From positions 21,145,835 through 21,209,834 of the forward strand of contig NC_003076.8 in the NCBI RefSeq assembly GCF_000001735.4: DNA of 64,000 nucleotides, read 5' to 3'. Source of the DNA: Arabidopsis thaliana (lineage: Eukaryota > Streptophyta > Magnoliopsida > Brassicales > Brassicaceae). The position numbers and the translations under genes were made by a program. The notes under the pieces are model-generated. The model had not been told where the DNA came from, ran no database searches, and saw only the letters and a list, made by a program, of their open reading frames with translations. Below, piece by piece: positions 11,203 through 64,000 of this stretch (position 1 is its first letter; every line of letters begins with the position of its first letter).

Positions 11203-12839
11203 TAGATTTTGTGTTTTTTTTTTTTTTTTGAATGAATGCAAAATTTTATTCACCAAAAAAACCATGGTTACATCAAGTGCTTCTTGTTTGAGTTGTTAGG
11301 CTCATACTTTGTCCTAGCTATGCCAATTAAAACCTAGTGGAAAGCCAAAATACAAACAAATCATCATATTTTGGGTTTCCTTGTTTCTGAAGAAGGGTGA
11401 TTCGGTTGCGAACGTTTTTGTCGATGTTGTTTCCAATGGCCAATGGTGTGATAGGGTTCTCCTCACCGTGTCGGCGATTATTCCTTTCTCTCCATATGGT
11501 GTGTACCGTTATTTGAAATGTATATCTCAGCAGTAGAAGATGTGAGGAGCGTAACAATGCGGTCCCAAGAAGAAGTGTAATGACCTTGAAGTAGGCCTTT
11601 CATGAGCTTCTCCCACACTTGTGTTGAATAAGGGCACTGAAAGAAGAGGTGATTTCTTGTCTCTACCGGTTCAGCACAGAATTTGCAGGTAGTATCCACT
11701 TGTGTGTTCCATGATCTCATTCTTGCACCCGTTGTTAGTCTATCATGAATTGCAAGCCAAGTGATGAAAGAGAACTTCGGTGTAGCTTCCGAGAACCAAA
11801 TCCCTTTCGCCCATCTGCAGATTGGTTTTTCAACTCTCAGCATTTTCCAAGTTTCATTTGAGGAGAAGTTGTGTTTAAAACCTGTCTTCCATTTCCATAG
11901 AATCAAATCTTCCTCTTCAACCTTCCTCCTCACCCTTGTTTCCCTGATGACCTCTTCCACTCTATTTAAAGTCTCCACTCTATGCCGTCTACCTCTGTGA
12001 GAGGCCAAAACGTCACCCACTGTGGCTTCTTTTGTAATACCCAAATCAATGCACCCTCGATCTCCAAAAGTATCAAATAAGTTCCCCAAAGAGGACCATG
12101 TATCATACCAAAAGGATGTCCCTCTGCCACTTTTTATTTCAACCTGATAGAAATCCTTTGCCAAGTCTCTAAGCTTTAAGAGTTTCCTCCACATCCAAGA
12201 ACCTTGAGATGAATTTCCCTTGACTGTCCAAAACGTTTTTTCCGAATTAAATAGGCATGAATCCACTTACTCCACAGAGACGTTGGTGCTGCAAATAAAC
12301 GCCAAATTAGCTTCAGACCACAAACTTTGTTTGTCTCTTTGAGAGGTCGAAGACCTAGTCCTCCTTCTCTAATCGGCAAACAAACTACATCCCACGATAT
12401 CTTAGCTTTAGAAGGATTTAAATCAGGCCCACTCCAGAGAAAAGCAGAACAAAGTTGTTGAATCTCTTTAATACAAGCGTCGGGTAAGCTGAATGTTGAA
12501 GACCAAAAGTTTGTGATGCTCATCAAGACCGCTCTTATCAACTGCAATCTCCCTGCATAAGATAGAAATCTACACGTCCAAGAGCTTATTCTGGTTCTGA
12601 TTTTCTCTACTAGAGGAAGATAATCATGAGCTGACATAGCTTTAGTCATCAAAGGTAACCCCAAATACCGTACTGGCAGCTTACCTGTTGCAAATGGAAA
12701 ACTCGATTGAATGGCAGCTTGAGTAGTAGGGTCAATCCCTGCCATGTAGAGAGTAGATTTCTCAATACTAATTCTCAAACCCGAGCATTTTGCATAACCA
12801 TCAAAAACAGAGATAATTTCCTCGATAGATTTTGTGTTT
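11203..12839 (-). mobile_element. 5'-truncated LINE (L1-like non-LTR retrotransposon) with target-site duplication
   Basis: A minus-strand L1-type insertion. A poly-T run at about 11213-11229 is its poly(A) tail. The 14-bp direct repeat tagattttgtgttt flanks it at 11203-11216 and 12826-12839. The coding remnant begins just downstream of the reverse-transcriptase catalytic box (C-S-G-L-x-I-S-x-E-K-S-T-L-Y), keeps the thumb region (GKLPVRYLGLPLMTK; SWTCRFLSYAGRLQLI), then a zf-RVT domain (W-L-A-I-H-D-R-L-T-T, C-K-F-C, H-L-F-F-Q-C-P) and ends WLSTRF near 11327. The coding sequence falls into three frames (about 12835-12260, 12266-11560 and 11557-11327), so at least two frameshifts separate them. 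It lacks the endonuclease and most of the polymerase and is dead. The intact duplication suggests a fairly recent, truncated insertion. Confidence 0.93.
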
Positions 12840-15440: not shown

Positions 15441-16281
15441 CATACATTAAAGCCGCCGCCGCCCAATCTGTTTCTCTGTGACGTTTCCAGATCTGAAGCT
15501 TGAAGTGGAGTCCTATCAGGTATTTCACTTTTTCTCTTTTTATCCTTTTGCTCGTTGTGATTATGGTCGAGTTTTGTGTGAGAAACGTCTTTTGAAAAGC
15601 AGAATTCTCAAACAGCTTTGGGATATAGTTTTTGGAACTCCAAGTTTTAATTTAAGCCTAATTTTGAAGATGAATTGTCAGTATAAATCTTTGATCTGAT
15701 ACTCTATTAGTTAGTATGTGAATTTCTTTTTAACAATTTTCTTATTCATGCGAGAGCTATCAATAAGTATTAGAACAAAGTTTTATACTGACAATTCAAT
15801 CTTACCTGATTTTCAAAAAAAAGTATATCTTGAAATTTTGTCTTGGGTAGAGTCTTTGATTTTGCTAGATAGTAGCATTAGGTGTTAGATGTTTTTATTC
15901 AGAATTTGAATGTTTGCTATGAACTATCTAGATTAATCTACTTGTGGATTAGACTACTCTCCACATGTTTTGGGTTATAATGATGTAAATATCAAAACAT
16001 TGATGGAGTAGATGGGGTGGTCTAGTCAACTAAGGTATTCTCAAAAATTGAATGGTCTAGTCCGCACTGCTAATGGATGACCATCTATATGTTTAGTACC
16101 TTATATATCAAATGATCTTTCATTTTTCCTTGGACAATAATGGCTATGGTCATTACAGTCTCTTTTGCTTCTTCAAAATAATTTTAAGCAAATCTGAGAT
16201 GTTGTGAGAGATCATTACTCCACCCAACTCTAACTCATAGTATAAGTTTTACTATGTGCAGTTCTCATCTTGGAAAAAAAA
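15416..16281 (+). promoter_or_regulatory. Promoter, 5'UTR and leader intron of the Agenet gene
   Basis: A telo-box-like attagggtttt lies near 15416, followed by GC-rich leader sequence with a (gcc)n stretch near 15452. A donor-like cag|gtattt near 15519 and an acceptor gtgcag ending at 16261 outline a leader intron of about 740 bp. The second leader exon carries the start codon at 16282. The splice sites are seen; use is inferred from the common plant pattern of leader introns. Confidence 0.55.
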
Positions 16282-18883
16282 ATGACTCAAATCAATTTGC
16301 CCTTCCAAATTGGGCAAATTGTGGAGGTTAAATCTTTTATCAGAGGATACCGTGGAGCTTGGTTTCGATGCAAGGTAATGCGGCTATCAATACTTAGTGT
16401 AACCTAACTCTTGGTTTTGAAGCAAGATAATTGGACTCATTGAGACAACCTTTACCCAAAATTTTTATATCATATAGGTCATTCCTTGATAGGAGTAATG
16501 TATGTACAAATGAATCTTGAAGACTAGTTGTAAGAACTACATACCAATCACTAAAACTACATGTTAACCACTATTTGATGTAGTGTCTGTTGATTCCACA
16601 AAGTTCTTATGGAACTCTTTTGTTCTTTCTCCTTTGACATTCCTTTTGAGTTGCCATCCTCGCCGCAATTCCAACAACCTTTGTTTTTCAAGGTCCTAAC
16701 TTAATTTACATGCCCCTCCATTGTTCATCTTCCTCTTTTGACTTCCAAAATATGATTTCTTCTTAGCAACCTTTTTCTTTTAGGTCTCCATCTCAATCAA
16801 CCTTTCTATTCTTACAGCTCGAGTGGACCCGAGTTCAAGACTCGGGCCCATGTCTCTATTTTTTCATGTGGAGATTATATCCCTGTCAAGTCCTCTTAAA
16901 TCTAAAGACCAATCTTCTCACTCTTTTGGAGGTGTCTTACACACCACCATACTAAGAGCTACTTGGTTAATTCAATGATTTTTTTTGGAATCTCAAAATC
17001 TTATATCTTTTTACATAGAACTCAATGAACCTTTTTGGGTTGGATATCAGTTTGATGCAACCACATCAATTCTTCATTGTCTCTTTTGGCATATCTATGA
17101 GGTTGAGCCATATATATCCCTTCATCTAGTTCTCCATGAGAAAATGATGTTTTAACATCTAACTGCTATGGTTCAAATATTTGGGCACTAATTACTTATG
17201 AAAACATGTTTTAGCACATGAAAAAAGATTTCATTGTGATTCATCTTTTTTTGCACACTCTTTCATAACAAGCCTAGTTTTTAATTCTTGAACATCCTGA
17301 TTTTCTTTTGGCACATCCATATAGAGATTCCGTTTTCTTATCATTGACTCTTCCTCTTTGTCCTTGAATGGATTTCTGATGGCAGCCTTGTAATTAGATT
17401 GGTATAGCTGATCTCTCCATTTTTTTATGTTAGCAAAGCAATATTTACAAAATTACTTCAAATCTCGTAGGAGCTTTAAGATTTCTTCTCATTATCTCTA
17501 GCAAGTTGAGTAATCTGCTAGTTCTAACTTAGATCCTCAACTCCTCTTCCTTAATAGCACTCGTAGCATTGTCATCAGATTCACCAATATCTCCTCGTAA
17601 CTCTGATGATGTTCACCTGTAGCTCATTATAGAATTCATCTTTAACGTTGTCATCATATTGGAGATACTTTTCTGTGATTAGATATAACTAGTCGAACTA
17701 ATGTAAAATTTCGACTGTCTTTTTTGTTTTTGATGGTTTATTAGATATTGGATATAAGCAATGAAAAGGGTGAACTAAGATACAAGTTTAAGTATCTCGA
17801 CTTTCCAGATGAACGTTAGTTTTATCCTCCAAGTATATATCTATTTCGGTTTTCTAACTATTGTAATGTTTTGCAAATGATATATGTTTCAGCTTTAGAT
17901 AATGCACTGGTCTTTGAAACACCTAAAGGTGGGACAGAAAGTCAGCTAATGCTTCGTCCAAAATATCCACCACTTTATCTTGAAAGTGAATATCTTAATC
18001 TCGAGAGTGACAACGTAGAACCTCTTGTCGTCGTTCATGATTCTTGGAAAGTTGGAGATTTAGTTGATTGGTTGAGAGATGACATTTATTGGTCTGGAGA
18101 AATTGTGGAAATGAGAGGTAGGAGAGCATGTCAGGTATGAAACATGTTGCTGTTGTGAAGTTTGTCATTGTTCTTTAGTTTTATGGTTTTATCAGTTGTC
18201 TACGAGTAACTAAAATTTGACAAAATTTTTGTTGTTTTTTTGCAGATCGAATTGCTTCCTAAACCAGAAGGGGAAGGAGATAGTTATCAAGGTTTGTGTA
18301 AGAATTTGCGTCCACGGTTGGATTGGTCAGTGGAAGATGGTTGGAAAGTGCCTTGCACTGCGGTTAGTTTTTCATTTCTTGTATCTGCTCCTGTTCTTGT
18401 TTCTGAGATTTACTCAACAGATGGTTAAAATTTTCTGGTTCTTGAATAGTTTGGTAACCTCACTTGTCATAGTTGCTGATCTTGGTTTGATCACATGTGT
18501 TGTAGGATGGGAAAAAATGTGCTAAGATCGTGACATCTAAGAAAGAAGGTTAGATTTTTTCTAATGGTTATGTGTTTATTGAATTCGTTTGGTTTTCTTG
18601 AAACATATGTTTGACTTATATTTTACATTTAGATGGTGGAATTGGAGATGAATGTGAAACTGCAAAAGAGCAAACGAAGAAAACCACAAAGCAAGTGGAA
18701 GGCAATGAAGGTCTTAGGCTTAATATTATGGAATCGGATGGAATTGAAGCTGCTGTGTTGGACATAGAAGAGCTTATCGTTCGAATTGATTGGTTTAAAG
18801 GAATATTAAAGCCGGATGTTGGAGAAGGTGCAAAATGTTCTTGGAAGTATGAAGATTACCGCCCATCTTCCTCTGGAATGTGA
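16282..18883 (+). CDS. Agenet (plant Tudor-like) domain protein
   Basis: Six coding exons join in frame: 16282-16374, 17745-17814, 17893-18134, 18246-18362, 18506-18548 and 18633-18883, giving about 271 residues. Two Agenet repeats are visible: the first at about residues 7-85 (FQIGQIVEVKSFIRGYRGAWF, then LRPKYPPL), the second at about 100-170 (WKVGDLVDWLRDDIYWSG, then LRPRLDW). Agenet domains are Tudor-like folds that read modified histone tails or bind other nuclear partners, so a chromatin-linked role is likely. The target is unknown. The acidic C-terminal third has no recognised domain. The first coding intron is unusually long (1.37 kb) and contains copia debris. It corresponds by position to AT5G52070. 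The structure is convincing; the exact function is not known to me. Confidence 0.9.
16560..17650 (-). mobile_element. Ty1/copia fragments inside Agenet intron (fossil)
   Basis: Read on the minus strand, the long first coding intron contains copia-like pieces: a reverse-transcriptase segment near 17100-17165 matching the family signature QLDVKTSF...GELDEGIYMAQP, an upstream segment near 17250-17350 resembling the start of the polymerase domain, and a CWNCGEDG zinc-knuckle-like segment near 16680. The pieces are not in the order of an intact element, so the fossil is both decayed and rearranged, with many breaks. No LTRs were recognised. It looks old. The host gene appears to splice it out. Confidence 0.7.
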
Positions 18884-20580: not shown

Positions 20581-21272
20581 GGATCCTTTCTCCACATGCA
20601 TGTATCCCATCATTCCATAGAGACACTCCCATTTGACACTCTAGTTTGCTAGGTACATGGATCTTGGGAGGATACTTGCACCTTAACAATATTGGTTGGA
20701 TTGTCCATATTGGTTTAAAGAGCTTTCGCAGTTGACAAATATATCCAAAGACCTAATCATCAACAACATACCGAAACTCCAAACACCGATTTAAAATGTA
20801 AGAGCATATCAATACTGAAGAATGAGAAATTGTAAGATAAAATAGAAAAAGAAAATCATCTCATACCTCGTAGTAGTGGAATGATCAGCCAAAAGATGCA
20901 ACTTGATGGTTGAGCAGAGAAAGAAAGGTAACCGATTGTGCGGTGAGGTCATAGACTCCAACTAGACAGAATTGGGATTCCAAAAGGACCCAGTGTGGCC
21001 GAGGAAAGCTCAGTAATCGCCAATGCATGTATTCAGTTACATCATTATATTGGTCTTTTCCAACTTGTTTGGTGTTTTAAACTTTTGTGTAATAAGACAT
21101 CAAATATGTAAGGTAGAGAGACTAGAGAGAGTTGATCATGTAATTACCATAAACCCATGGAGGACTAACCGGAACGTACGTGAGAGAAACTTGTATATCT
21201 TCATATCTCTGGTAGGTACTACCGAACTGGTTAGGATTTTCACCCAATGTTGCTTCCTCTGATCGTTAGAGA
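20581..21272. other. Intergenic DNA left of the TRIM insertion
   Basis: No gene recognised. A plus-strand frame at 21023-21262 has no known domain. The sequence ends at the TCGAG target-site copy of the adjacent element. Confidence 0.45.
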
Positions 21273-21277
21273 TCGAG

Positions 21278-21393
21278 TATTAGACTGTGGGCTTCCAACC
21301 TAAAACCAATTGGCAATAGGTGGAGAGGCTCATATCTTATATATACCACTTAAGATCCTACTCAACTTCCGATGTGGGACATTGTCCCTAATA
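21278..21393 (-). repeat. 3' LTR of the TRIM-like element
   Basis: 116 bp, tattag...ctaata termini, identical to the other copy except for one base. It includes the cacttaagatcctactcaac / gatgtgggac sequence common in plant LTR and TRIM ends. Immediately inside it (21394-21402) is the purine tract on the minus strand. Confidence 0.9.
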
Positions 21394-21509
21394 CGCCCCC
21401 TCGAGATGATGGCTCTTCTAGCCATTGATCTCGATATGTTTGGGCATGGATCGGCGGGCCAAGTATTGGGCCGAACCGATGTGGATCGGGTTGAGTATGT
21501 GCGGATCGG

Positions 21510-21521
21510 GCTCTGATACCA
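21510..21521 (-). other. tRNA-Met primer-binding site of the TRIM-like element
   Basis: The minus strand reads tggtatcagagc, complementary to the 3' end of initiator tRNA-Met and the usual primer site of plant copia and TRIM elements. Here it lies about 2.2 kb from the 5' LTR instead of directly next to it. Confidence 0.85.
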
Positions 21522-21597
21522 TAAAACATCATAAAAATCCAATACAGAGTTTTGATAGGAAACACACAAAAACATAAGACAAGCTCACATAAAAAAT

Positions 21598-23679
21598 CTA
21601 CCAAACATTTCTTCTTCCATGGCCATTCCTAAGCGAAAGAGATCCAAGACTCGAAGACACATCCTCAAGCAAAGCTTCATTCATGGCATCTCTTAGATTC
21701 ATCTCATCAGTAGCATCATGGAAACATCCACGTGTCCTAGACTCACTTATCAGTGTTGCCCAAATCGAACCACTTAGAGCCAAAGTTGTCTCGTTCCCAA
21801 TCACCCATAAACAGTGTCTTGCTCGAGTCAGTGCCACGTTAGCTCTTTGACGGTTGTTAAGAAATCCGACTTTTCCATTACCGTTACTTCTAACGGTGGA
21901 GATGATGATAATGTCTTCTTCTCCTCCTTGAAAACCATCTACGGACCGAACATTCAAAGTGAATTGCTGACCTGATAAGGAACTGTACTTATCTCCGATT
22001 TTCTCTTGGATTGCTCTCATCTGTCCTTTGTAAGGTGAGACCACTCCGACACTCACCTTCATCCTCCTTTCACATGAAACTTTGTAAAGATTTGATATAA
22101 TTTCAGAAATGACAGCAACTTCAACCATGTTTTTGGGACTATGTCCATCACCAAACTCTTCTTTTCCACGTCCAACATTGATAAAAGAAAATGAGTCAAA
22201 CATGTTTCCTTTAAGAAACCTCTTTTGATAAATACTTTCTTTAACATTTTCAGCATCTTTGATTCTCCCACCATAAAACTCCTTGTTGGGGAAACGACTA
22301 ATAGAAGGATGCATTCGATATTGAACATCAAGCAAGTGTTTGTTGTGACCAAGCAAAACCAATCTCTCAAACAAGCTTCTTCCGAATTTCGCCTTTTCAC
22401 ACATCTCATTATGAACCATTGCAGGCAATTGAAACTCATCTCCTATTAAAATGGCGTGACGCAGTCCCGGAAGTTGCAATGCAGCAACTGATTCACATTC
22501 CTTAAGCTGAGCCGCCTCATCAACCACAAGCAGTTCTACATTTCCTGTCCTTTCCACGTTCATTTCCGCAGCACCCGAGGCTGTGCAGAGGATAATATCC
22601 GCGTTTTGAAGACAAAATTTCCTAATATCTTCGTTTTCTAACATGTCTGGAATCTCAAAACGTTTTGGAAGTAAGCGTAGAGCCTTGAGGCAATCATCAC
22701 TGAGTCTTTTGAAGCAATCAAATCTGAAATTTCCTTCCTCGAAATCAACCCTAGAAGAATTCTCCCTCAAGAAATATCTGATACGCTGAAGAGTTTGACG
22801 AGAAGCAATCATTTTCTTCACATCTTCATATGGAAGGTAAACCTTGGGAAGATGTGTATACAAATCAACGATGCATGTCTTCACTTCTTCACTTAAGCTA
22901 TTAAAATTCTTCTGAACGAATTCTCCAAAAGTAGGAATGTTAACAACAACTTCTTCCCTTTCATCTTCTTCATTCATTCTTTCAACTTCTTCTAACTCGT
23001 AGACATGTCTCTCATACTTTCCCTCGGGGTTTTCAAGAAACTGTATCAGTGACTCTAATCTCTGCATCCATCCAGAAAATGGTGAAAACAGTTTACCAAG
23101 CTTACCAATACGCTCATCAAGAAACACATCGAGAAGAACATGATCGTTCTTGTTAATCCCCATTCTGTCCCGGTTTCCGGATAAAATGATATTCCCTAGC
23201 CTGTAAGTAGCATTTTCCGCTGTCGAGTTTTCCTTAAATAAGGATAAGAGCCTTGATGTAACTTGTACAATAGCTGTGTTTGTAGGAGCACACACAACTG
23301 TCTTGCACCTTAGTTTGAGAAGGGCAAAGAGAAGAGTCGCGACCGTCTTTGTTTTGCCTGTTCTAGGAGGTCCCCATATCAGTTTCACACTGTTCTTATG
23401 GGTACAGTTTCTTGTCTCAAGGCAGCCCAAGATTGCATCCTCTTGGGAAGAGTTCAATTTCGTTGAACGGATTATATCCAAAACAAGGTCAGATCTCCCA
23501 TCATTTTCAGAACAAAAACATTGTTCTGTACCCTCAGTATTAGCCTGAAGCACACTCTTGGTTAGAGTCGATATGTCAGCTTCGTTGTGCAAAGCATTCC
23601 AAATTCGAGTGTTTGTTGTTAAAGTCATTAGAAAAACACCGAAGCTATAGTTCTCAAGAGGTGATATCGATCTAGACAA
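21598..23679 (-). CDS. SEN1/UPF1-type superfamily 1 helicase, intronless, inside the TRIM-like element
   Basis: A single 693-codon frame with the superfamily 1 helicase motifs in order: Walker A G-P-P-R-T-G-K-T (about residue 104), Walker B V-V-D-E-A-A-Q (about 393), motif [12 protein letters not shown] (about 420), motif IV Q-Y-R-M-H-P, motif [11 protein letters not shown], motif VI A-L-T-R-A-R. These place it with plant SEN1/MAA3-like RNA/DNA helicases (the tRNA-splicing endonuclease positive effector group, as the AT5G37150 cluster). Related genes are, as I recall, longer at the N-terminus, so this copy starts late ([12 protein letters not shown]). It has no introns and lies between LTRs with a target-site duplication, so it is best read as a captured, processed copy of a host gene. 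All motifs are intact, so it could still make an active protein; whether it is expressed is unknown. It corresponds by position to AT5G52090. Confidence 0.9.
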
Positions 23680-23739
23680 ATGAACAGAGATTTTAAGATT
23701 TTAAGATCACCTCTATAGTTCTCAAGAGGTGATATCGAT
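23645..23739. repeat. 27-bp direct repeat at the 5' LTR-helicase junction
   Basis: The same 27 bases occur at 23645-23671 and 23713-23739. On the minus strand each copy encodes I-S-P-L-E-N-Y. The outer copy abuts the 5' LTR and the inner copy is the start of the helicase frame. The 41 bases between them are unrelated. This looks like a slip or template switch during reverse transcription. Confidence 0.85.
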
Positions 23740-23854
23740 ATTAGACTGTGGGCTTCCAACCTAAAACCAATTGGCAATAGGTGGAGAGGCGCATATCTTA
23801 TATATACCACTTAAGATCCTACTCAACTTCCGATGTGGGACATTGTCCCTAATA
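23739..23854 (-). repeat. 5' LTR of the TRIM-like element
   Basis: 116-bp partner of the repeat at 21278-21393. On the minus strand it starts the element; the outer neighbour is the tcgag target-site copy. A TATA-like tatatata in its middle may serve as its promoter. Its outer end lies about 510 bp upstream of the CRR1 start codon. Confidence 0.9.
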
Positions 23855-23859
23855 TCGAG

Positions 23860-24368
23860 AACTCTGATCGCCTGAAACCGAGAATCTGATTCTGGACTAT
23901 GGAAAGTTTTGAAATTTGGCCGGAAAATTGAAACCCTAAATTTTTTTTGTTTTGAGAGAGAAAACCCCTAAAAACCCAAGCTCTGTTTGGTGTATCTCTT
24001 TCTTGGGAAACAAGTTCTTTTATTGCATTTTTTTTCCCTATCCTCGTATTTTCCATACAAAATCAATGTTAAATTTTAAGTTTCAATTTTGTCCGCAAAT
24101 TAGAAAACTTGGCAAAGTAACCTTCTTAGTGTAAAATTTTTAGAATGCCCTCAACCAAATTTTAAAGTGTTTAAAAAAAAAAAATTAAAGTGTTTAAAAA
24201 AAAAAAAAAAACACGAAGAGCCAAGTAACCTTATCCATTCATACGCCTCAAACAGAGACGACAGCGTTTGAAGTAGAAGACAAAGGACAGTGCAAGAATC
24301 TCTTATCAACATGAGAAAACCATCAAGCAAAAAAAAGAAACACAAAAGCTATCTCCGAGGTTAGAGCA
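23860..24368 (+). promoter_or_regulatory. CRR1 upstream region
   Basis: Short intergenic stretch between the TRIM-like insertion and CRR1. It has two long A-runs near 24172 and 24196. No clear TATA box; light-regulated motifs were not confidently recognised. The TRIM insertion has displaced anything further upstream by 2.6 kb. Confidence 0.4.
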
Positions 24369-26273
24369 ATGGCAGCTGTGAACTGCCATTTCTTCCAGCT
24401 ATCACGACATCTCAAACCTTCTAGGCCTTCTTTTTCCTGCTCTGCTTCTCAACCTTCACAAAACAACATTAAGGTAATCACATCACCATCAACATCATCA
24501 GAATCAGGAGTTTCCAGACAATGCAGCTTTGATATGATAATGCTTCTAATTTCCCTATTAGGTAATCATAAATGGAGCTGCTAAGGAAATAGGTAGAGCG
24601 GCTGTGGTGGCTGTGACTAAGGCTAGGGGAATGGAGTTAGCTGGTGCTGTCGATAATCATTTTGTTGGCGAAGATATTGGCTTGGTGACTTAGCTTAAAA
24701 CCCATCTGTATACTATTCCAACTGGTTGGTTTATCTATTGATTGACTCCCTAACTCTAATGTTCTTGCATAGCTGTGTGACATGGAGGAGCCTTTAGAGA
24801 TACCTGTAGTGAGTGATCTAACAATGGTGTTAGGCTCAATATCTCAGGTGCCATTATTTTCTTAACCCTCCCTGTCTCTCTGTTCTCACCAGATTTAAAT
24901 TCTACGGAACAACCTAAACGAATGTCTTTAGTAGGGAAAAGAAGTCGGAGTTGTGATCGACTTTACAGACCCATCAACAGTGTATGAGAATGTAAAACAG
25001 GTAACCAATTAACTTCTCTTTTTGTCAAGCTCATATCCAGTAATATGGAAACTATCACTGTGTTAATGATTTCTGAATCTATCAAGGCAACGGCATTTGG
25101 GATGAAGAGTGTGGTGTATGTACCTCGGATTAAGCCAGAGACAGTATCTGCGTTGTCTGCACTATGTGACAAGGCCACCATGGTGAGCACAGGGTGAGAT
25201 GAGATACTCGCAGATTATTCATTACGTTCCCTTTCTTTGTGAGGTCGAGTCTGTCCTGAAGCAACAATTGTTAGACGAGAGATGGTTCACTAAAATCTAA
25301 TTTCGTCTCTGCTTGCGTTATAGGGATGTCTTGTAGCACCAACTCTATCCATAGGATCTATACTTCTCCAACAGGCTGTGATCATGGCCTCCTTCCACTA
25401 CAACAATGTAGAGCTAGTGGAGTCAAGGCCTAATGCAGCGGTATGCCATAAACAAAAAAAAAACAATTTTAATTTCCTAGAATTCTGGGTTTTAACTTTG
25501 ACACTTGTGGAATGTTGATCAAGACTAATTAAGGCATATAATACTTCAAAGAGGCTAGTTAAGAAAGAACAATATAGAGCTTTTTCATATAGAGCGCATA
25601 TGCAGCTTTTGACATTGAATCACAAGAAGTGACTTAAACGATACCTATGAAATGCAGGATCTTCCTTCTCCTGAAGCTATCCAAATTGCAAACAACATAT
25701 CAAATCTTGGTCAGATCTACAACAGAGAGGATAGTTCAACTGATGTTCAGGTAAAGCATGAATAAGCTTGCAGATATGGACCAGTTAGGGATCCTGTACA
25801 TATTATACATAAACAAAGCTGAGTTTTCCACATATTTCCAGGCAAGAGGTCAAGTAATCGGAGAAGACGGGGTTCGTGTTCACAGTATGGTTCTACCAGG
25901 ACTACCATCTAGTACACAAGTCTACTTCTCAAGTCCAGGAGACGTAATTAATAATACTTGACCTCTTGTTAGATCACTCAAAATCAAACTGAAAATTGGA
26001 TACTCTATTTTAAAATTTAGGCTACATAGCTCATTAAAATTCTTCTGATACAAAATGCTGTCCACAGGTTTACACTGTTAAACATGACATAATTGACGTA
26101 AGGTCCCTAATGCCCGGCCTACTCCTAGCAATCAGAAAGGTGGTACGCCTCAAGGTAACATGGAAACAAGCAAGAATTCTCCATCCATTAATCTCTTACT
26201 GTTATCTAATCACTTGCCATTATTCTCTTTGGTTTTCCAGAATCTGGTTTATGGCCTCGAGAAATTTCTGTAG
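24369..26273 (+). CDS. CRR1: CHLORORESPIRATORY REDUCTION 1, NDH complex assembly factor
   Basis: Ten coding exons join in frame to 298 residues, the known CRR1 length: 24369-24473, 24562-24684, 24773-24847, 24935-25000, 25087-25182, 25324-25440, 25658-25750, 25842-25943, about 26068-26154, and 26241-26273. The first about 33 residues (Ser/Arg/Pro-rich, few acidic) look like a chloroplast transit peptide. A Rossmann-type nucleotide-binding segment follows (I-I-N-G-A-A-K-E-I-G-R-A, then a long helix and acidic turn G-A-V-D), then I-D-F-T-D-P-S-T-V and a central G-E-D-G-V-R-V-H-S-M-V-L-P-G-L. The fold is that of dihydrodipicolinate reductase (DapB). Established work gives CRR1 a stromal role in building the membrane-arm-facing subcomplex of the chloroplast NADH dehydrogenase-like complex, rather than in lysine synthesis. 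It is convergent with CCB2. All introns except small variations are GT-AG. Confidence 0.97.
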
Positions 26274-26818: not shown

Positions 26819-28119
26819 CTAACCTCTGAATTTCTCAGCCATAGCTCCAATCCAGGCTCTATCTTTATCGCTATATGCATATCCAGCAGTAGAGGCCACC
26901 AGCAAAAACCCATTCACTTTCTGCGGTTCATTTGTATTTTGTACGAGAGGTTGCACAAAAAGAGAACGCGTCCCATCAGGAAGTATATCCAAAGATAGTG
27001 CAGAACCTAAAATAAAACTGAAAGTTAACATATATTTCAACACCATAGAAACAAAAGAGTAATATTCCATGCATTCAGGTATACAATAGATCGACAATGC
27101 TGAACAAATTCAAGACCGTGCGATTGAAGAAAACACAATACCTGCATACTGAGGGAAATAAAGGGTCTCCTTCACATCAGCCAAGCCAATCTCATCCACT
27201 TTTTTCTTAAACCAATCATGAAGTTGAGCCTTTGACATTTGATCTGGACAATTCCAGTACCCGCGAACACAAAGCTCGCCTTGAACCGATATCAACTGAA
27301 CAAAATACAATCTTTCTCAACTAAGGAACATATCAAAGATCAAACAAACCCTTATCCAAGAGAGTACACCATACCACAGCTATAGTACTTGTATTCCTCA
27401 ACAAAACATACGTTGCCCATGCTAAATCCTCTTTCAAAGAATCTCCAATATTTGATGATATCACAAAAACCTGCTCTCCTTCTTCAGGGAGACTTCTCTG
27501 CTCCACTACAGAACCCTAAACACACAACCAAACAACACCAAATAAGTGAACAACAACAACAAAAGTTTTTCTTCACAGAATCTAAAAGTTATGAATTTAC
27601 CTTAAGGAATTTTCCAATGTAAGGTAAAGCTATTGAAAATGCAGCTAGTGATAAACCCAAAGCCTCTGATCTCTATCACCAAAAAATTCACAAAAAATGC
27701 TAAAGTTCATAGCTTTAAATAGCAAAAACACTGTGAAGCGAAATTGTTACTAATTACCATTTGAGATTCACTGATTGGAGCAGAAGCTGAGAAGTGGTTA
27801 AGAAGAAGAAGTGATCCAAAGCCGTACCCGATCCATCTCGGTAGATAAGATTCGTCAAACCCAGGAATTCCTACAGACGCAGACACAAATCAATTTCAAA
27901 TCTTTCTCGAAAATAGTTGGGAAAAATCTGAGCTTTGAAGTGGGGAAGGAAGAAAATACCAAAAGTGAAGCGAAGAACAGAGAGATTGAGTTGTTGATCA
28001 GATGTCTTTGATTGTGGAGAATCGTTCTCTGTACGAGCGAAGATTCGTGTTGACCTTTGGGCGCGAGGTTGTAGCGCGAATTTAGGATGGAACGGGAAAT
28101 TACAAATTTGAATACTCAT
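26819..28119 (-). CDS. CCB2: Cofactor assembly of complex C protein 2 (CCB2/HCF208)
   Basis: Six coding exons on the minus strand, 28119-27960, 27870-27758, 27672-27601, about 27515-27375, 27295-27142 and 27006-26819, give 275 residues, the known length. The N-terminus to about residue 50 (phenylalanine, arginine and serine-rich, F-A-L-Q-P-R-A-Q-R-S-T-R-I-F-A-R) is a chloroplast transit peptide. Two hydrophobic segments follow (W-I-G-Y-G-F-G-S-L-L-L-L and G-L-S-L-A-A-F-S-I-A-L-P-Y-I-G), then a hydrophilic domain ending A-M-A-E-K-F-R-G. Family knowledge: CCB2 with CCB4 and CCB1/CCB3 attaches haem ci (cn) covalently to cytochrome b6 on the stromal side of the thylakoid, and mutants lack the b6f complex. 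It lies tail to tail with CRR1, 545 bp apart. Confidence 0.97.
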
Positions 28120-29383: not shown

Positions 29384-29669
29384 TATTTCTTAAAGCAACC
29401 ATAATGTCAACTATCAAAATTATTAGTAAAATTTAGGGTTCCATTAATTTATGAAGTTGGTTTAATGTAGTGGTTAAATGGATTGATAGGAAAGTTTAGA
29501 TGGAGAGTTTAAGACCTATCTCAATTTTATCATTTTTTTTTGCTTTGAATATGATTTTGGACCCCTCAAATTATAGGTAAATATTTAGGCCTTTTTCTTG
29601 TATTTTTGTCAGCATCTTTTTTTAGAATTGTTTCTTTTTCTATTTTTTTATAGTTATCATATCGATAAT

Positions 29670-30074
29670 AAATATGACATTGTAGCGTATGGCGACGGAA
29701 GAGGCAGAGTGTTAGCACTCATTTGGGCGATACAAGCTTCCTATGGCTTCGGGCATAAGAAGGTTATTTTTGAGGGAGATAATCAAACCATCACCCGAAT
29801 GATAAACACAAAGTCATCTAATCCAAGGCTACAACACTTTCTCGACACTATCCAAAGTTGGATACCAAGTTTTGAATCGATAGAATTTTCTTTCAAACAT
29901 CGAGAGCAGAACGGATGTGCGGATTTCTTAGCCAAACAAGCCATCAAAGAGAATACTCAATGGTCTCTGTTTCATTCTTGTCCTTATTTTCTGAGTCCAT
30001 ATGTAAACAACGATTACTCTTAAGTTCTAAATAAAGTTATAAGTTGGAAAAAAAAAAAAATATGACATTGTAGC
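29670..30074 (+). mobile_element. Severely 5'-truncated LINE tail with RNase H-like domain and target-site duplication
   Basis: The 15-base direct repeat atatgacattgtagc occurs at 29672-29686 and again just after an A-run (about 30048-30060) at 30060-30074. Between them an open frame to 30023 encodes an RNase H-like domain of the RVT_3 type: A-L-I-W-A-I-Q-A, V-I-F-E-G-D-N-Q-T-I, then H-R-E-Q-N-G-C-A-D-F-L-A-K-Q-A. These are the usual final domain of plant LINEs. The left junction falls inside the frame, so the ATG at 29598 is chance. It belongs to a different LINE lineage from the element at 11.2-12.8 kb, which ends without RNase H. The uninterrupted frame and intact duplication suggest a recent insertion. 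Confidence 0.9.
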
Positions 30075-30826: not shown

Positions 30827-33800
30827 TTAATCGGAATATTTGTATTTCCCTCTATACTCAAATGGACATATGATCACACAATCTAAACATAAACCACCTT
30901 TGGTATGTGTACAATCTATCTGGAGCATAGAGAATTTGACCCAAACGGGTGAGTTCTGATTCTCTACGACGAAGTCACCCGCATGATGATAAACCCACCT
31001 CCCCGACTCATCCAAATGTCGTTCCGACATAGCGCATTGGCCATCCGATGTAGACAACTGAAACCGGACCGGTTTGATGTCCCAGCCATGAACTTGGTCC
31101 AAACTACATGTTTTCCTCCCACACTTTCTAATAGGTTTGCCTAATTGTATCTTGAAAAGTAAACTGTATTTTCCGGGTGCAAATTCGAATCTGATTTTTC
31201 CAACTGCTTCTAACCACCATATTTGCCGGAGATAAGTTATTGATCCAAATCTGAATGAACAAAAAGTTCAATAAAATTACAAGTTAAGAACCATTGATCA
31301 TATGAAATTAATCATAATGCGAGTGTTGGTCCAACTCCAAGTGGAAAATGTTGATAAGCTCTAACTTTAGTTAAACTATAGACTATATGTCACTTAATTA
31401 TGATATCACAAGTGGAGGAAATATTCGATCTCATCTAATAGACTTATAAATAAGTACTTAACACTTTTTTTTTTTGAGTCTTATGTATATGCAGTACAAA
31501 TGAAAGAAATTAGTAGTGTTTTGATTGGTAGATAAATGTCAAAGTAACAACGAGGCCTGCTAATGATAGACTTAGCACAACTTATCTACCAATCAAGTGT
31601 AATATATATCAAATATATAGATAAATATATTCATATTGAAGTCATACAGTGGGTTAATGATTATGCATAAATATATTTATATTCTACTTGTTCCTAATTT
31701 CGGATAATATTCGAATCATATATGTGGACAGAATCTGGATAGAATTTCCAACTAAACATTATAATTATTAAAGAAATATATGAGATATATATATAATACA
31801 TGTGGGGAAATAGAAGGAAAAACCGATTGTTGAAAGAAAGCCATCCAATTATTGGGTATGATCGAGCAAATTTGGGATAAGAGAAAATGACACATTCATC
31901 GACGACCCAAAACTTTCCCTATTCACTAAACAAACCAGCTTTTTGAGCTTATCTAAAAATTCTATATGTACATAAATACATTACCTGTAAATTTACGTAT
32001 TCATATATCTATATATACATTGTGTACGTCATTATACATTTCGTATACGTGTTGATTAATATCTTCTATCTAAGATTCTTAGAGAAAACCAAAATCTAAC
32101 ATCACCTGAACATTATTTAATTTTCACTTTATAGTTCCCTCAATTATTTCAGAAAAATATCTACTATAAGAAGTTTATGATACTTGAGCAATAATACATG
32201 AGTTATGATATTTTTCTTGTTTCTAAGAGACATGAGTAGTATCTTTCAGTTTATCTCTAGATCTGGTTTATGGAGGAAAAAAAAAAAACGTTTGAGTAGT
32301 TTCTTTTTTTACGTAGTTAATAATACTATGTTTAGAAATTCTTACCGAATTGTTGCATGAAAAGCTATTGTTGGTTACTTTTTTTGGTTACTATATACTT
32401 TTATGTCTATTCTTAGTAACTCGTTTAAATTAATATGCAAGTATAAAAATTGACTTTTATGTTTTCAGGTTTCTTCGTGAAGTGTGTAATTACGAAATGT
32501 GTAATCATCAACTTTGACCAAGGTTATGGCATGATTATATGATTTGTAGCCAATAATAACATTGTTATTTCTTGTTTACATTATCCAATGATTACAATTG
32601 AAAGGGAAAGAAAGAAGTGTTGAAAAAGTCTTTCCCTTTATACTAGAACTAATGATAGGTTTAAAGCACAATTAAATTCTCAAATCAGCGAGAGTCTAAC
32701 TTTAAGGTATTACTAAATCAAAGTGGATCATGGATATTCGATATATCTCGAGATTAAATATTCGATAAAAATATAGCCATACCATGTCAAAATTACTGAT
32801 TTTTCTTACAGACTATCTAATTCGTGTCCGGCCTAAAATGTTTTGACTACGATGAAAACAAAATGAGAAAAAAAAATAAAAATGAAAAGAAAGAGAGAGG
32901 TGTAAAAAAGGACCTGGATTCATCGGAAGAAATATGTTCCCAATATCGGCGATCATCAATGCCGGTTATCTTCATTGCCTTTGGTGATATCGCCAAAAAC
33001 ACTTTCCCACTTCTCTTGTCCAACCATGCTTCCTTCTCAATATTACAATCCAAACATTTACTTTTATATTAATATTAATTTATCAAATAAATCGCAACCT
33101 TTGTTCCAAAAAAAAAAAAAAAAAAATTCGCAACCAACTTTTACAATATTTTTATATTTTTAAAAAGATAGGAATCATCTTTTTTTTTTTTTTTTCTTTT
33201 GTACACATGACAAACCCCGATCGCCCGAATTTTAAACGTAGCATTTTGATATGATTTGCAAGTCAAATCCAAACATACCGGAACCACTTATCTATAATAT
33301 GAACCAGATTTTATTCATATTTTTCAATTTTATTTCCTCTGCATTCCCTAAATATAATTGGTAATGAAACCGAGTCACGAAAATATCTTTCAAACTAGTG
33401 ATGCATGTTATCCTCCATTCATTTCAGTTTTTCTTATTTTAATAGTTCCTCTTTCTATACAAATTGTATTTATTGTTATTAAAAAACATCCTACGACCGA
33501 AAAAGATGCGAAAAGCTTAGATTATAAAGAAATTTTAAACCCAAAATGTAACGAAAGTGTGTTTAATTCAAAAGAAAAGAAAAAGGTAAAGGAAAAGTGT
33601 GGAAAATAGTAATAGCTTTTATGTGTTAGTTAATATATTTAGGCATGATGGGAATAACTATTATACTTTAGGCATGAATTTCTAACATTATCAATGGATT
33701 CGTAGAACATATTCTACTGTCTCTAGAAGCTTTTCTAACACTTGTTATTGGTCATAAAATGAAATAATAGGATAAATTAGACATATTGACAAAAAATACT

Positions 33801-51139: not shown

Positions 51140-54125
51140 ATGAATGGCGATCTTGAAGTTGATATGTCTAGAGGAGATTTCAATCCAAGTTTTTTTCTTG
51201 GAAAGCTTAAAGACGATGAGTTTGAGAGTAGATCATTGAGTGATGATAGCTTTGATGCAATGTCTGGTGATGAGGATAAACAAGAACAACGCCCTAAGAA
51301 GAAGAAGAGGAAGACAAAGTATCATAGACACACTTCTTACCAGATTCAAGAACTCGAATCGTAAGAAGTTTCTGGTTTTTAAAAGAATCTAAACTTTTTC
51401 ATATTCATCAAGTGGTTTTTGAATGTTTGATATTTTCTGAGTGTAGTTTCTTCAAAGAGTGTCCTCATCCTAATGAGAAGCAAAGGTTGGAACTTGGCAA
51501 AAAACTTACTTTGGAGAGTAAGCAAATTAAGTTTTGGTTTCAGAACAGAAGAACACAAATGAAGGTACTTTATCTGAAAAGTTATGGTTTTGATAGTAGA
51601 GTTATGATTTTTATGGGAATGTTGTGGTTTTTATATTGACCAGACGCAACTAGAGCGGCATGAGAATGTGATTCTCAAACAAGAGAATGAAAAACTGCGG
51701 CTAGAAAACAGTTTCCTTAAAGAGTCAATGAGAGGCTCTCTATGTATTGATTGTGGTGGAGCAGTTATACCTGGTGAGGTTTCTTTTGAGCAGCACCAAC
51801 TTAGGATTGAGAATGCTAAGCTTAAGGAAGAGCTTGATAGGATTTGTGCTTTAGCAAATAGATTCATTGGTGGGTCTATTTCACTTGAGCAGCCTTCAAA
51901 TGGTGGGATTGGCTCACAGCATTTGCCTATAGGACATTGTGTCAGTGGTGGAACTTCACTGATGTTTATGGATCTTGCCATGGAAGCCATGGATGAGTTG
52001 TTGAAGTTAGCAGAATTGGAAACTTCTTTATGGAGTTCAAAGAGTGAGAAAGGATCGATGAACCATTTCCCTGGTTCAAGAGAAACTGGTTTAGTACTTA
52101 TCAATAGCTTGGCTCTAGTCGAGACTCTTATGGACACGGTATGCTATACTCTCTAATAACCGGTATTTTATCGATATATGCACACTCTACTAAACGTCTC
52201 ATCTTTGTTATTGGTTTGTTACAGAACAAATGGGCAGAAATGTTTGAGTGCATAGTCGCGGTTGCATCAACCCTTGAAGTGATATCCAACGGTAGTGATG
52301 GATCAAGAAACGGCTCTATTCTATTGGTATGTTACTCAAGAACCATAAAGATTATATATTTTGGCGACATTTGCTAATTCAATGAGTCCTTTGTTTGGAA
52401 CAGATGCAAGCAGAGTTTCAAGTGATGTCTCCATTAGTTCCAATCAAACAAAAGAAGTTTCTTAGATATTGCAAGCAACATGGAGATGGTTTATGGGCGG
52501 TCGTCGATGTTTCTTATGATATAAACAGAGGAAATGAGAACTTGAAGTCTTATGGTGGCTCTAAAATGTTTCCTTCAGGATGCATTATACAAGACATAGG
52601 CAACGGCTGCTCCAAGGTAACTTCTCTTTCTTTGTTAGGACAATTTTTTATGTCTTGGATCTGCGTGATGTTTTATTGAATTGTTTATAGTTGAGAGTTT
52701 GGTCAGTCTTGTAAACTAATTACAAAGGAGTCGACAATTAGCCTGAGAACCTGAAGCCTTTTGTGTATAAAACTATAAAAGATTCTTCTATTTCTTTGTT
52801 AATACATATCAAAGGGTTCACTTTTCAAGGTAGAGGTTGCTTCTTGTCTGAGCTAGTTCTAGGCTATCATAAATAATTTATACAAAAATATCTTGTTTTG
52901 TTTACTTATATCGATGGAAACTTACATATTGGATTAGATGAATCTGATATGTACATTTCTTCGTAAAATGAGTTGTTACTTATAGTCACAACTATTATTT
53001 ACTCAATGTCACATATTTGGTTTAACACAAATAATTTCAACAGGTGACATGGATAGAACATTCAGAGTACGAAGAGAGTCACACCCACTCACTTTACCAA
53101 CCGTTGCTCAGTTCTTCGGTTGGGTTAGGCGCAACCAAATGGCTTGCGACTCTGCAGAGGCAATGCGAGAGCTTCACAATGCTTTTGTCTTCTGAAGATC
53201 ACACAGGTTTTGGCTCGTTCTCTTTCTTTTTCTCTCAGCATTTGAATCTTGAAATGTTGCAATTTGAACGAGAGATATTATTCAAGAATGTTTTACGATA
53301 GGTTTGTCACATGCTGGAACAAAGAGTATACTAAAGCTAGCGCAGCGTATGAAGCTCAACTTTTACTCGGGAATAACTGCTTCGTGCATTCACAAATGGG
53401 AGAAGCTTCTTGCTGAGAACGTGGGACAGGACACAAGGATACTGACAAGGAAGAGTCTTGAGCCGTCTGGTATTGTCCTGAGCGCTGCGACATCTCTGTG
53501 GCTACCAGTGACTCAGCAGAGACTCTTTGAGTTTCTGTGTGATGGTAAATGCAGAAACCAGTGGGATATTTTGTCTAATGGTGCTTCAATGGAAAACACA
53601 CTTCTCGTCCCAAAAGGACAACAGGAAGGAAGCTGCGTCTCTCTTCTTCGTGCTGCTGTGAGTTTATAATCTATTCTGAATCTCTCTATTCATTAAACTC
53701 CAAAAAGATCTCTGTTCTTGGTTACTGATTAGATCGATTTGCAGGGGAATGATCAAAATGAGAGTAGTATGCTCATCTTGCAAGAGACATGGAATGACGT
53801 TTCTGGTGCACTGGTGGTTTACGCGCCTGTTGATATTCCATCTATGAATACTGTAATGAGCGGTGGAGATTCAGCTTATGTGGCGCTTCTTCCATCGGGG
53901 TTCTCGATATTGCCTGACGGATCATCATCATCGTCTGATCAGTTCGATACCGATGGCGGTTTGGTGAATCAAGAAAGCAAAGGATGTCTCCTGACTGTAG
54001 GATTTCAGATCTTAGTGAACAGCCTACCGACTGCAAAACTCAACGTGGAATCTGTTGAAACTGTTAACAACCTCATCGCTTGCACCATTCACAAGATCAG
54101 AGCCGCTCTTCGTATACCTGCTTAG
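51140..54125 (+). CDS. HDG7: Homeodomain-leucine zipper IV transcription factor HDG7
   Basis: Nine coding exons: 51140-51360, 51447-51564, 51644-52138, 52225-52326, 52404-52616, 53044-53206, 53302-53657 and 53745-54125 carry the frame, with about 680 residues in all (eight segments listed; boundaries are GT-AG). The start is M-N-G-D-L-E; the ATG a few codons earlier lies in the leader intron. An acidic N-terminus (D-D-E-F-E-S, S-G-D-E-D-K) precedes the homeodomain at about 54-116 ([12 protein letters not shown], then [13 protein letters not shown]). A zipper-loop-zipper with a C-x2-C-like C-I-D-C loop follows, typical of class IV, then START (about 215-440) and the C-terminal SAD domain. Class IV factors bind the L1 box in epidermal genes and specify outer cell layers. 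The START domain may bind lipid. Confidence 0.97.
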
Positions 54126-62262: not shown

Positions 62263-64000
62263 TTAGTCCTTAGAGAAAGATTGTGTAAACCTTAGATCAT
62301 CAGGTTTACCTACAGTCTTGTTCGTCATATAATCACAGTTGTTTTGCCTACCTTTAGCTTCTTGTGTTGCTGCTGTAGTAGACGTCATCCCCTGTGACTT
62401 TGACTTCGTATCTGGTTCATCTAACCCGATCGGGATTGCGCCTGTTAGAGTTTTTATAGCAAAGTCGATACACGGGTCTTGCCAGATATTTGCACCCGGG
62501 GGTGGACTCGGAAATACCAGTTTTTCAGAGCATGTGTTAACATTTCCTGGAGTCTCTGGGGTAAAGGAGACTCCTTTCTGCTTGGTGTGGTTGTTAATGG
62601 GATTAGAAGAGATCGCTGGAGTGTTGAGAAGACACAGAGATTCTCCGGTTAGAGTTTTGATAGCAAAGGCAATGCAAGGATCTTTACAAAGATCTGCAAG
62701 AGTCGAGTCAAATGCAGAGGAGAAGCTGTTGGTACTCTTCTCCATCACTTCTGAGCATGTGCCTCTTACAACGGATGAGTTAGAATACTCATTAGCTAGT
62801 TTATTTCTCCTTTGAATGGCAGAACCACTGTCAGAAGGATGTGGTTGCTTTCCTTTATTTGGTGATCTCAGAGGCGAGATCTGAGTTGGTTTCACACTGG
62901 TAGTAAGGTTAGCCTTTGGGCTAGACCTTCCCACTCTTTTGCCTGCTGCTGTCTTCTCACACTTTGTTGCAGAAGTTTGGCAAGACAACGGTGACACAGG
63001 TGACATTTCTTCCTTCTGCTTGTAACCGTCAAGATGAAAAACTGGATTCAGTTCATATACTATCAGTGGTGATTTCAGCGTCTTCTTGTCTTTAGAAGGC
63101 TTCCTGCCTACTGCTTTACCGATATTTTGTATTCCCACTGCCGAATCTGCACTCACACGATTGTTGCTTGTTGCAGCAGCAGCATGTGGTTTCTGAGAGG
63201 ATTGTTCATTACAGCTTTGGGCTACTTCCTTGTTGAGCGGTATTTCCGTCTTTTTTGATCCGCTGGTAGTAACATGATTCACAGGTTGCTTGCACTTTCC
63301 GGCTCTGCCATCATCAGGAGGTATTCTTTGTTGTACTTTGGTTCTCGTCTTAAATTCAGGCGTCAGTTCATCATCAGGAGGTACTATTCGTTGAACTTTG
63401 GTTCTTGACTTCAGTTCGGGCGTCAGTTCATCATCAGGAGGTAATATTCGTTGAACTTTGGTTCTTGTCTTCAGTTCAAGCGTCGGTTCATCATCAGGAG
63501 GTACTATTCGTTGAATTTTGGTTCTTGTCTTCAGTTCAGGCGTCGGTTCATCATCAGGCGGTACTACTCGTTGAACTTTGGTTCTTGTCTTCAGTTCAGG
63601 CGTCGGTTCATCATCAAGCGGTACTATTCGTTGAACTTTGGCTCTTGTCTTCAGTTCAGGCGTTGGTTCAAGCTCAATACCAGCTAACCGTTTTGATGTT
63701 CGTCGGGCTACACTATTACTTAGCTCATTCTTCTTCTCTTCAACTTTACTCCTTGTGATCCGTTTCTCAGAAGAATCTTGTTCCTCTTCTTCCTTCATAA
63801 CAGCTTCCTTCTTTGGTTTTTGTGACCTTACACTGGAGTTTACAGAATCTACAAATATAGAGAACATAGAAAAAATTGGTGTCCTCAAATCTTTTTGTTA
63901 TCTCAGCCACTACTCAGGTGGAAATATTAAGTCAGGTATCTGCACACCTTTTTCTGATTTTGCATTTGATGAAGACAGATTTCTTTTTAAATCTACGACG
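62263..64000 (-). CDS. MBD13: Methyl-CpG-binding domain protein MBD13, C-terminal part
   Basis: Partial: the exon 63848-62263 and the end of the previous exon (64000-63948, S-S-S-N-A-K-S-E-K) are seen; the N-terminal part with the MBD domains lies beyond the window. The visible region is basic and disordered (K-K-E-A-V-M-K-E-E-E-E-Q-D), then six copies of a 20-residue unit, then a long Ser/Lys-rich stretch. It ends with two copies of a conserved motif, D-P-C-I-A-F-A-I-K-T-L-T-G near 62700 and D-P-C-I-D-F-A-I-K-T-L-T-G near 62470, before the stop at 62263. MBD proteins can bind methylated CpG; the plant MBD13 role is not well known to me. Corresponds to AT5G52230. Confidence 0.88.
63308..63669 (-). 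repeat. 60-bp coding minisatellite in MBD13, six copies
   Basis: Each unit encodes E-P-T-P-E-L-K-T-R-T-K-V-Q-R-I-V-P-P-D-D or a near variant. Five units are 20 residues and the last is 21. Copies 2-5 are the most alike, indicating recent tandem expansion or conversion. Basic patch followed by PPDD acidic end repeats along the chain. Confidence 0.93.

What the first reader, a model, noticed from the sequence alone, without database searches (positions are those of the whole stretch)
21273..23859. A helicase gene carried as cargo of a TRIM-like element
The sequence directly shows two 116-bp LTRs differing at one base, an exact 5-bp target-site duplication outside them, an interior primer-binding site and purine tract, and an intronless 693-codon helicase between. 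Together these mean the gene and the element moved as one piece. TRIMs normally carry no genes; transduction of host genes by TRIMs has been reported in Arabidopsis, so this may be that case or a sister. The near-identical LTRs point to a recent event.
Basis: partly seen in the sequence, partly recalled or inferred. Interest (0 to 1): 0.82.

Follow-up and report, generated by a model that had tools for sequence, protein, structure and literature searches.

The report
Arabidopsis mini-retrotransposon carrying a captured helicase
A tiny Arabidopsis jumping element carries a front-truncated, intron-free-looking copy of a cellular RNA-helicase gene; the structure is real, but this case was almost certainly described in 2001.

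Summary
The window contains two 116-bp direct repeats differing at one base (21278-21393, 23739-23854), an exact TCGAG duplication outside them, a tRNA-Met-type primer-binding site, a short purine tract and an unbroken SF1 (SEN1/UPF1-like) helicase frame. The frame is 676 codons from its first ATG (700 stop to stop), not 693. Passages of two papers say that Witte et al. 2001 reported an NMD-factor-like ORF inside the Arabidopsis TRIM Katydid-At1, one adding that it lacked introns. A separate paper lists AT5G52090 with a 116-bp flanking direct repeat, from a screen requiring the gene to be absent between the A. lyrata flankers. I could not read Witte 2001, and a 2026 review describes it differently. 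What I add is anatomy: the element reads on the minus strand, and the cargo lies between 5' LTR and PBS, an order that standard reverse transcription of one RNA does not give; a template switch with strand transfer through LTR homology would. Donor, introns and empty site could not be tested here.

The parts
21273..21277 (.). Target-site duplication, left copy (TCGAG)
21278..21393 (-). 3' LTR (116 bp); on the element's sense (minus) strand it is the downstream repeat
   Evidence: orientation from PBS and purine tract
21396..21402 (-). Purine tract GAGGGGG, two bases from the 3' LTR
   Evidence: read
21394..21521 (-). TRIM internal region, 128 bp, from PBS to the 3' LTR; GC 0.562 against 0.405 for the ORF
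21510..21521 (-). Primer-binding site TGGTATCAGAGC (complement of the plant initiator tRNA-Met 3' end; tRNA identity recalled)
21522..21597 (-). Stretch between helicase stop and PBS, probably donor 3' UTR (inference); GC 0.263, no run of 5 or more A
21598..23628 (-). Helicase ORF, 676 aa, SF1 SEN1/UPF1-like, apparently 5'-truncated; motif I reads GPPRTGKT
23629..23700 (-). Open frame continuing upstream of the first ATG (24 further codons), probably donor coding sequence
   Evidence: donor assignment is inference
23645..23671 (-). 27-bp repeat, inner copy
23713..23739 (-). 27-bp repeat, outer copy, abutting the 5' LTR (last base shared with it); read here as a scar at the cargo/LTR junction (inference)
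23739..23854 (-). 5' LTR (116 bp); TATATATAA starting at 23806 on the minus strand, 178 bases upstream of the helicase ATG
23855..23859 (.). Target-site duplication, right copy (TCGAG)

Best explanation
This is most likely the Katydid-At1-type TRIM of Arabidopsis thaliana that captured a spliced, 5'-truncated copy of a SEN1/UPF1-like helicase transcript (most likely AT5G52090) and then inserted as one piece, duplicating TCGAG. Shown: the repeats, the single TSD around the whole, PBS, purine tract, orientation, the helicase frame, and the block order 5' LTR - cargo - PBS - internal - purine tract - 3' LTR. Inferred: during reverse transcription in a borrowed particle, the enzyme read the TRIM RNA through the PBS, switched to the helicase mRNA inside its 3' UTR, copied it antisense until inside the coding region, and switched back to the end of a TRIM U5; the 27-bp duplication would mark that second switch. 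Second-strand transfer then used LTR (R-U5) homology rather than the PBS, giving two matching LTRs and one cargo copy. An integrase supplied by another element inserted the product. The 5' LTR has a TATA-like box pointing at the helicase, so any expression probably starts there. Because the PBS is 2.2 kb from the 5' LTR, standard reverse transcription of this copy would not reproduce its form, so it is probably a single-copy dead end. The confidence given is for 'TRIM with transcript-derived helicase, the published case'; the particular strand-transfer route I hold at about 0.4.
For: LTRs, TSD and the single LTR difference; PBS; purine tract, and 360 bp as the summed length of the parts other than cargo. 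Helicase domains PF13086 and PF13087, the best two of 7 Pfam families; SEN1 is the best solved-structure match and UPF1 is among the next; 8 of 8 motif patterns found, the patterns being recalled and motif I written to allow any residue at the changed place. Block bookkeeping: the heterodimer route with LTR-homology transfer reproduces the observed order; the canonical one-RNA route does not. Literature, through passages: Katydid-At1 with an NMD-factor-like ORF lacking intron sequence, attributed to recombination of host transcript and TRIM; one TRIM gene acquisition reported by 2016, in A. thaliana, same reference. AT5G52090 with a 116-bp direct repeat (section 8), from a screen requiring no hit over 15 bp to the gene between the A. 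lyrata flankers (Methods).
Against: Witte 2001 was not held, so identity with that case rests on secondary accounts; a 2026 review gives the same reference as 3'-transduction of a cytochrome P450-like fragment. The authors who list AT5G52090 call such repeats gene-like and not transposon-associated, label this one 'DRE/CRT-binding factor 1', and say it occurs in the A. lyrata orthologous region. No Katydid reference, donor, intron or accession data could be examined. Locus numbers of the neighbours are recalled; in the search meant to tie CCB2 to At5g52110 the 3 papers listed hold no At5g52110. LTR ends are not TG...CA. Sabot and Schulman found template-switch complexes in Triticeae but say not in Arabidopsis (passage). 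The strand transfers are bookkeeping with routes that I chose to encode.
Confidence: 0.85

Rival explanations
1. The TSD belongs to an older TRIM or solo LTR at this site, and a circular DNA (one LTR plus helicase) later recombined into it, leaving LTR-helicase-LTR. The flanking TSD would then not prove that helicase and element arrived together.
For: AT5G52090 is listed with its 116-bp repeat 'yes' in the A. lyrata orthologous region, and the authors favour insertion of circles at homologous repeats. Katydid-At1/At2 LTR pairs mostly did not cluster, and the author suspects recombination between elements.
Against: LTRs differ at 1 of 116 bases; an insertion shared with A. lyrata at 5 My would be expected to show about 8 differences at 7e-9 per site per year, P(1 or fewer) 0.0027 (rate and divergence time assumed), unless converted. 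The sections that I read do not say that the A. lyrata repeat is at the exact site, so a dispersed TRIM copy nearby could explain the 'yes' (inference).
Confidence: 0.1
2. DNA-level or multi-step route: a read-through RNA from an upstream LTR through the gene into a downstream TRIM was copied, and a middle LTR was later lost.
For: Gives the same block order after loss of a middle LTR (reasoning; not run); multi-LTR TRIMs are reported in Rosaceae (passage).
Against: Needs an extra precise deletion between the helicase 3' side and the PBS; blastn of the LTR against the window at E 0.01 gave only the two LTRs, so no remnant was detected there.
Confidence: 0.12
3. An ordinary LINE-type processed retrocopy of the helicase landed inside an existing TRIM, between LTR and PBS.
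For: The cargo looks intron-free and 5'-truncated and has its 3' side towards the PBS; a frame with a zf-RVT domain, probably LINE-derived, is in the window.
Against: No run of 5 or more A between helicase stop and PBS, and the cargo ends directly at the PBS and begins directly at the LTR end.
Confidence: 0.05

Closest known systems
Katydid-At1 with transduced NMD-factor-like ORF (Witte et al. 2001, known to me here only through citing papers)
   Same: A. thaliana TRIM, intronless NMD-type ORF inside, capture from a host transcript proposed (passages)
   Different: No difference could be established; whether that paper noted the cargo's place upstream of the PBS is unknown to me
TRIMs with gene fragments in soybean and Medicago (PMC4717578, passages)
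   Same: Exon-only cargo, two LTRs, 5-bp TSDs
   Different: Those elements are 1,172-1,449 bp, carry fragments over 70% identical to host genes, and all but two subfamilies have two or more copies; here a 676-codon frame in a 2,577-bp element
Bs1 of maize
   Same: LTR element with captured host gene segments (passages)
   Different: Three host gene segments and a chimeric gene fused to gag; not a TRIM
AT5G52090 as a transposed gene with flanking repeats (PMC2869330, sections 8 and 11)
   Same: 116-bp direct repeat, SEN1-type helicase name
   Different: There placed among genes whose repeats are called gene-like, with recombination favoured over a retrotransposon

Membership tests
TRIM (terminal-repeat retrotransposon in miniature) | Terminal direct repeats of about 100-250 bp | tested here: met
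   Two of 116 bp; definition from a passage
TRIM (terminal-repeat retrotransposon in miniature) | TSD of 4-6 bp | tested here: met
   TCGAG on both sides; definition from a passage
TRIM (terminal-repeat retrotransposon in miniature) | Internal domain 100-300 bp, element under 1,000 bp, no coding capacity | tested here: not met
   Met by the backbone alone (128 bp internal, 360 bp summed without cargo), not by the composite of 2,577 bp with a 676-codon frame. It is a TRIM-like backbone with cargo, not a plain TRIM
TRIM (terminal-repeat retrotransposon in miniature) | PBS next to the 5' LTR (general LTR-element feature, recalled) | tested here: not met
   PBS present and exact, but 2,217 bp separate it from the 5' LTR
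TRIM (terminal-repeat retrotransposon in miniature) | Purine tract next to the 3' LTR | tested here: met
   GAGGGGG two bases from the LTR; short
LTR elements in general | LTR ends TG...CA | tested here: not met
   Both copies end TATTAG...CTAATA; whether Katydid-At1 normally has TG...CA is not known to me, and other non-TG/CA elements exist (abstract start in listing)
Katydid-At1 family | Sequence similarity to the Katydid-At1 reference | not testable with these tools
   No whole genome held for the window and no plant repeat library among the tools
SEN1/UPF1-like SF1 helicase | Two RecA-like domains with motifs Q to VI | tested here: met
   PF13086 and PF13087 above cut-off; 8 of 8 recalled motif patterns found, with Arg in motif I where SEN1 has Gly
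SEN1/UPF1-like SF1 helicase | N-terminal stalk/1B region before motif Q (recalled) | tested here: not met
   51 residues precede the aligned core, against 237 in the SEN1 construct; this rests on a weak first stretch (14.0 bits) of the alignment
Processed retrogene | Intron-containing parent gene | not testable with these tools
   Stated by a citing paper for Katydid-At1; no parent sequence could be fetched

The most novel reading that the evidence does not exclude
The cargo sits upstream of the PBS because capture happened while the minus strand was being extended past the PBS, with second-strand transfer through LTR homology. That would be an upstream capture route not described for plants (a 2026 review says 5'-transduction has not been reported in plants; passage), leaving a form that cannot copy itself faithfully.
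Probability: 0.3. Interest if true: 0.42.

Novelty: already known. Interest (0 to 1): 0.2.

Why it matters
It confirms in raw sequence a cited case of gene capture by a coding-free mini-retrotransposon. It also joins two published accounts that I did not find linked: the Katydid-At1 transduction (4 held papers name Katydid-At1) and AT5G52090 listed as a gene moved with non-transposon repeats (1 held paper names At5g52090; the word TRIM does not occur in it). The position of the PBS gives a testable constraint on how capture happened.

Tried and rejected
Own genome: none held. Relatives of the helicase in viral contigs: 1 stretch matched a pattern, 0 confirmed by tblastn. Further copies of LTR, internal region, helicase or junction stretch in the window: blastn at E 0.01 gave none besides the two LTRs and the 27-bp repeat; tblastn of the helicase at E 1 gave only itself. 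The RNA fold of the 110-nt junction is not unusual (z -0.98, 35 of 200 shuffles fold at least as well). Bacterial-type promoter/terminator scan: 8 promoter-like found against 6.2 expected, 1 terminator-like against 2.5; not relevant to a plant. LINE-type retrocopy inside a TRIM: set low for lack of an A run and for ends exactly at LTR and PBS. Dating: 0.62 My at 7e-9 (95% 0.016-3.4) or 0.29 My at 1.5e-8 (0.007-1.6) (rates recalled), too broad to use and open to LTR recombination. Neighbour check: 5 of 10 frames given to Pfam had a hit; the three frames of the presumed CRR1, and 17820-18140 and 51608-52156, had none.

Papers: PMC4717578, PMC545599, PMC8616336, PMC4528315, PMC4646964, PMC13317346, PMC1950507 and PMC6934838 were seen as search-term passages only; PMC2869330 as passages, outline with abstract, and sections 8 and 11. 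Witte 2001 was not read. Other papers were seen only as search listings with the starts of abstracts.

Full report
Observation. Two 116-bp direct repeats lie at 21278-21393 and 23739-23854 with one difference. TCGAG stands directly outside both. On the minus strand the order is: LTR (23854-23739), a short junction stretch with a 27-bp repeat, helicase frame (23628-21598), 76 bp of AT-rich sequence, PBS (21521-21510), a GC-richer internal stretch, purine tract (21402-21396), LTR (21393-21278). Without the 2,217-bp cargo the parts sum to 360 bp, a normal TRIM size by the definition quoted in PMC4528315 (under 540 bp, LTRs 100-250 bp, internal 100-300 bp; passage). The LTR ends, TATTAG...CTAATA, are not the usual TG...CA.

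The cargo. Pfam gives AAA_12 and AAA_11 as the best two of 7 families, the two halves of SF1 UPF1/SEN1-type helicases. By sequence the best solved-structure match is SEN1 (9.4e-55), with UPF1 among the next (8.6e-51), of 24 distinct sequences at E up to 0.001. The 8 motif patterns that I searched (recalled) were all found. Two points suggest that it is not a full enzyme. Only 51 residues precede the aligned core, where the SEN1 construct has 237, though this rests on a weak first stretch of 14.0 bits. And motif I has Arg where SEN1 has Gly. The frame is 676 codons from the first ATG and 700 from stop to stop; the finding's 693 matches neither.

Identity. A paper on transposed Arabidopsis genes lists AT5G52090, 'tRNA-splicing endonuclease positive effector-related', with a 116-bp direct repeat (section 8). 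The repeat length and the SEN1-type name agree with the window. Neighbours agree in kind: a CCB2/CCB4 domain in both frames tried at 26819-27109 and 27333-27515, a phloem protein 2 domain at 30827-31267, and MIR4245 at 15672-15799. That these are At5g52110 and At5g52120, that 24315-24584 begins CRR1 (At5g52100), and that MIR4245 is an Arabidopsis family, is recalled. Pfam found nothing in the three CRR1-region frames, and the paper search for the CCB2 number did not confirm it.

Prior description. Two papers state that Katydid-At1 transduced an NMD-related gene (passages); one adds that no intron sequence was found and that recombination between host transcript and TRIM was proposed. PMC4717578 says only one TRIM gene acquisition had been reported by 2016, in A. 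thaliana, citing the same work, without naming the gene in the passage seen. Against this, a 2026 review credits the same reference with a cytochrome P450-like fragment. I could not read the original. On balance the finding is that published case.

Mechanism. In block bookkeeping, a TRIM RNA with cargo between U5 and PBS, copied by the canonical route, yields cargo at the inner end of the 5' LTR and again beyond the 3' LTR; cargo placed after the PBS would be copied faithfully. The observed order is reached if the strong-stop DNA comes from a normal TRIM RNA, the minus strand is extended through PBS, cargo, U5 and R of a chimeric template, and the second transfer uses LTR homology. Template switching between co-packaged RNAs is a published mechanism for complex LTR elements, though its authors found such complexes in Triticeae and say not in Arabidopsis (passages). 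The 27-bp duplication (23645-23671, 23713-23739) abuts the LTR end and looks like a slip at the switch, but its origin is inference. The stretch between helicase stop and PBS has no run of 5 or more A, so the switch into the mRNA would have been inside the 3' UTR or on a tail-less RNA.

Timing and site. One difference in 116 bp gives 0.62 or 0.29 My by rate, with 95% intervals of 0.016-3.4 and 0.007-1.6 My (rates recalled). The same paper reports the repeat in the A. lyrata orthologous region, which keeps the recombination rival alive at about 0.1.

Verdict.

Noticed in passing
15672-15799: Full-length MIR4245 precursor match on the + strand (141.1 bits, gathering 74).
   Followed up: partly
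11478-12838: Two overlapping minus-strand frames that look like a broken non-LTR retrotransposon; the one scanned, 11478-12266, carries a zf-RVT domain, the other was not scanned.
   Followed up: partly
29589-30023: Frame with an RNase H-like RVT_3 domain, perhaps a retroelement fragment.
   Followed up: no
21257-21293 and 23862-23898: Sequences just outside the element are 70% alike over 37 bp, the left one running into the LTR, so the target may have been an imperfect short tandem repeat before insertion.
   Followed up: no
62263-63897: Long minus-strand frame with several near-identical tandem peptide repeats.
   Followed up: no
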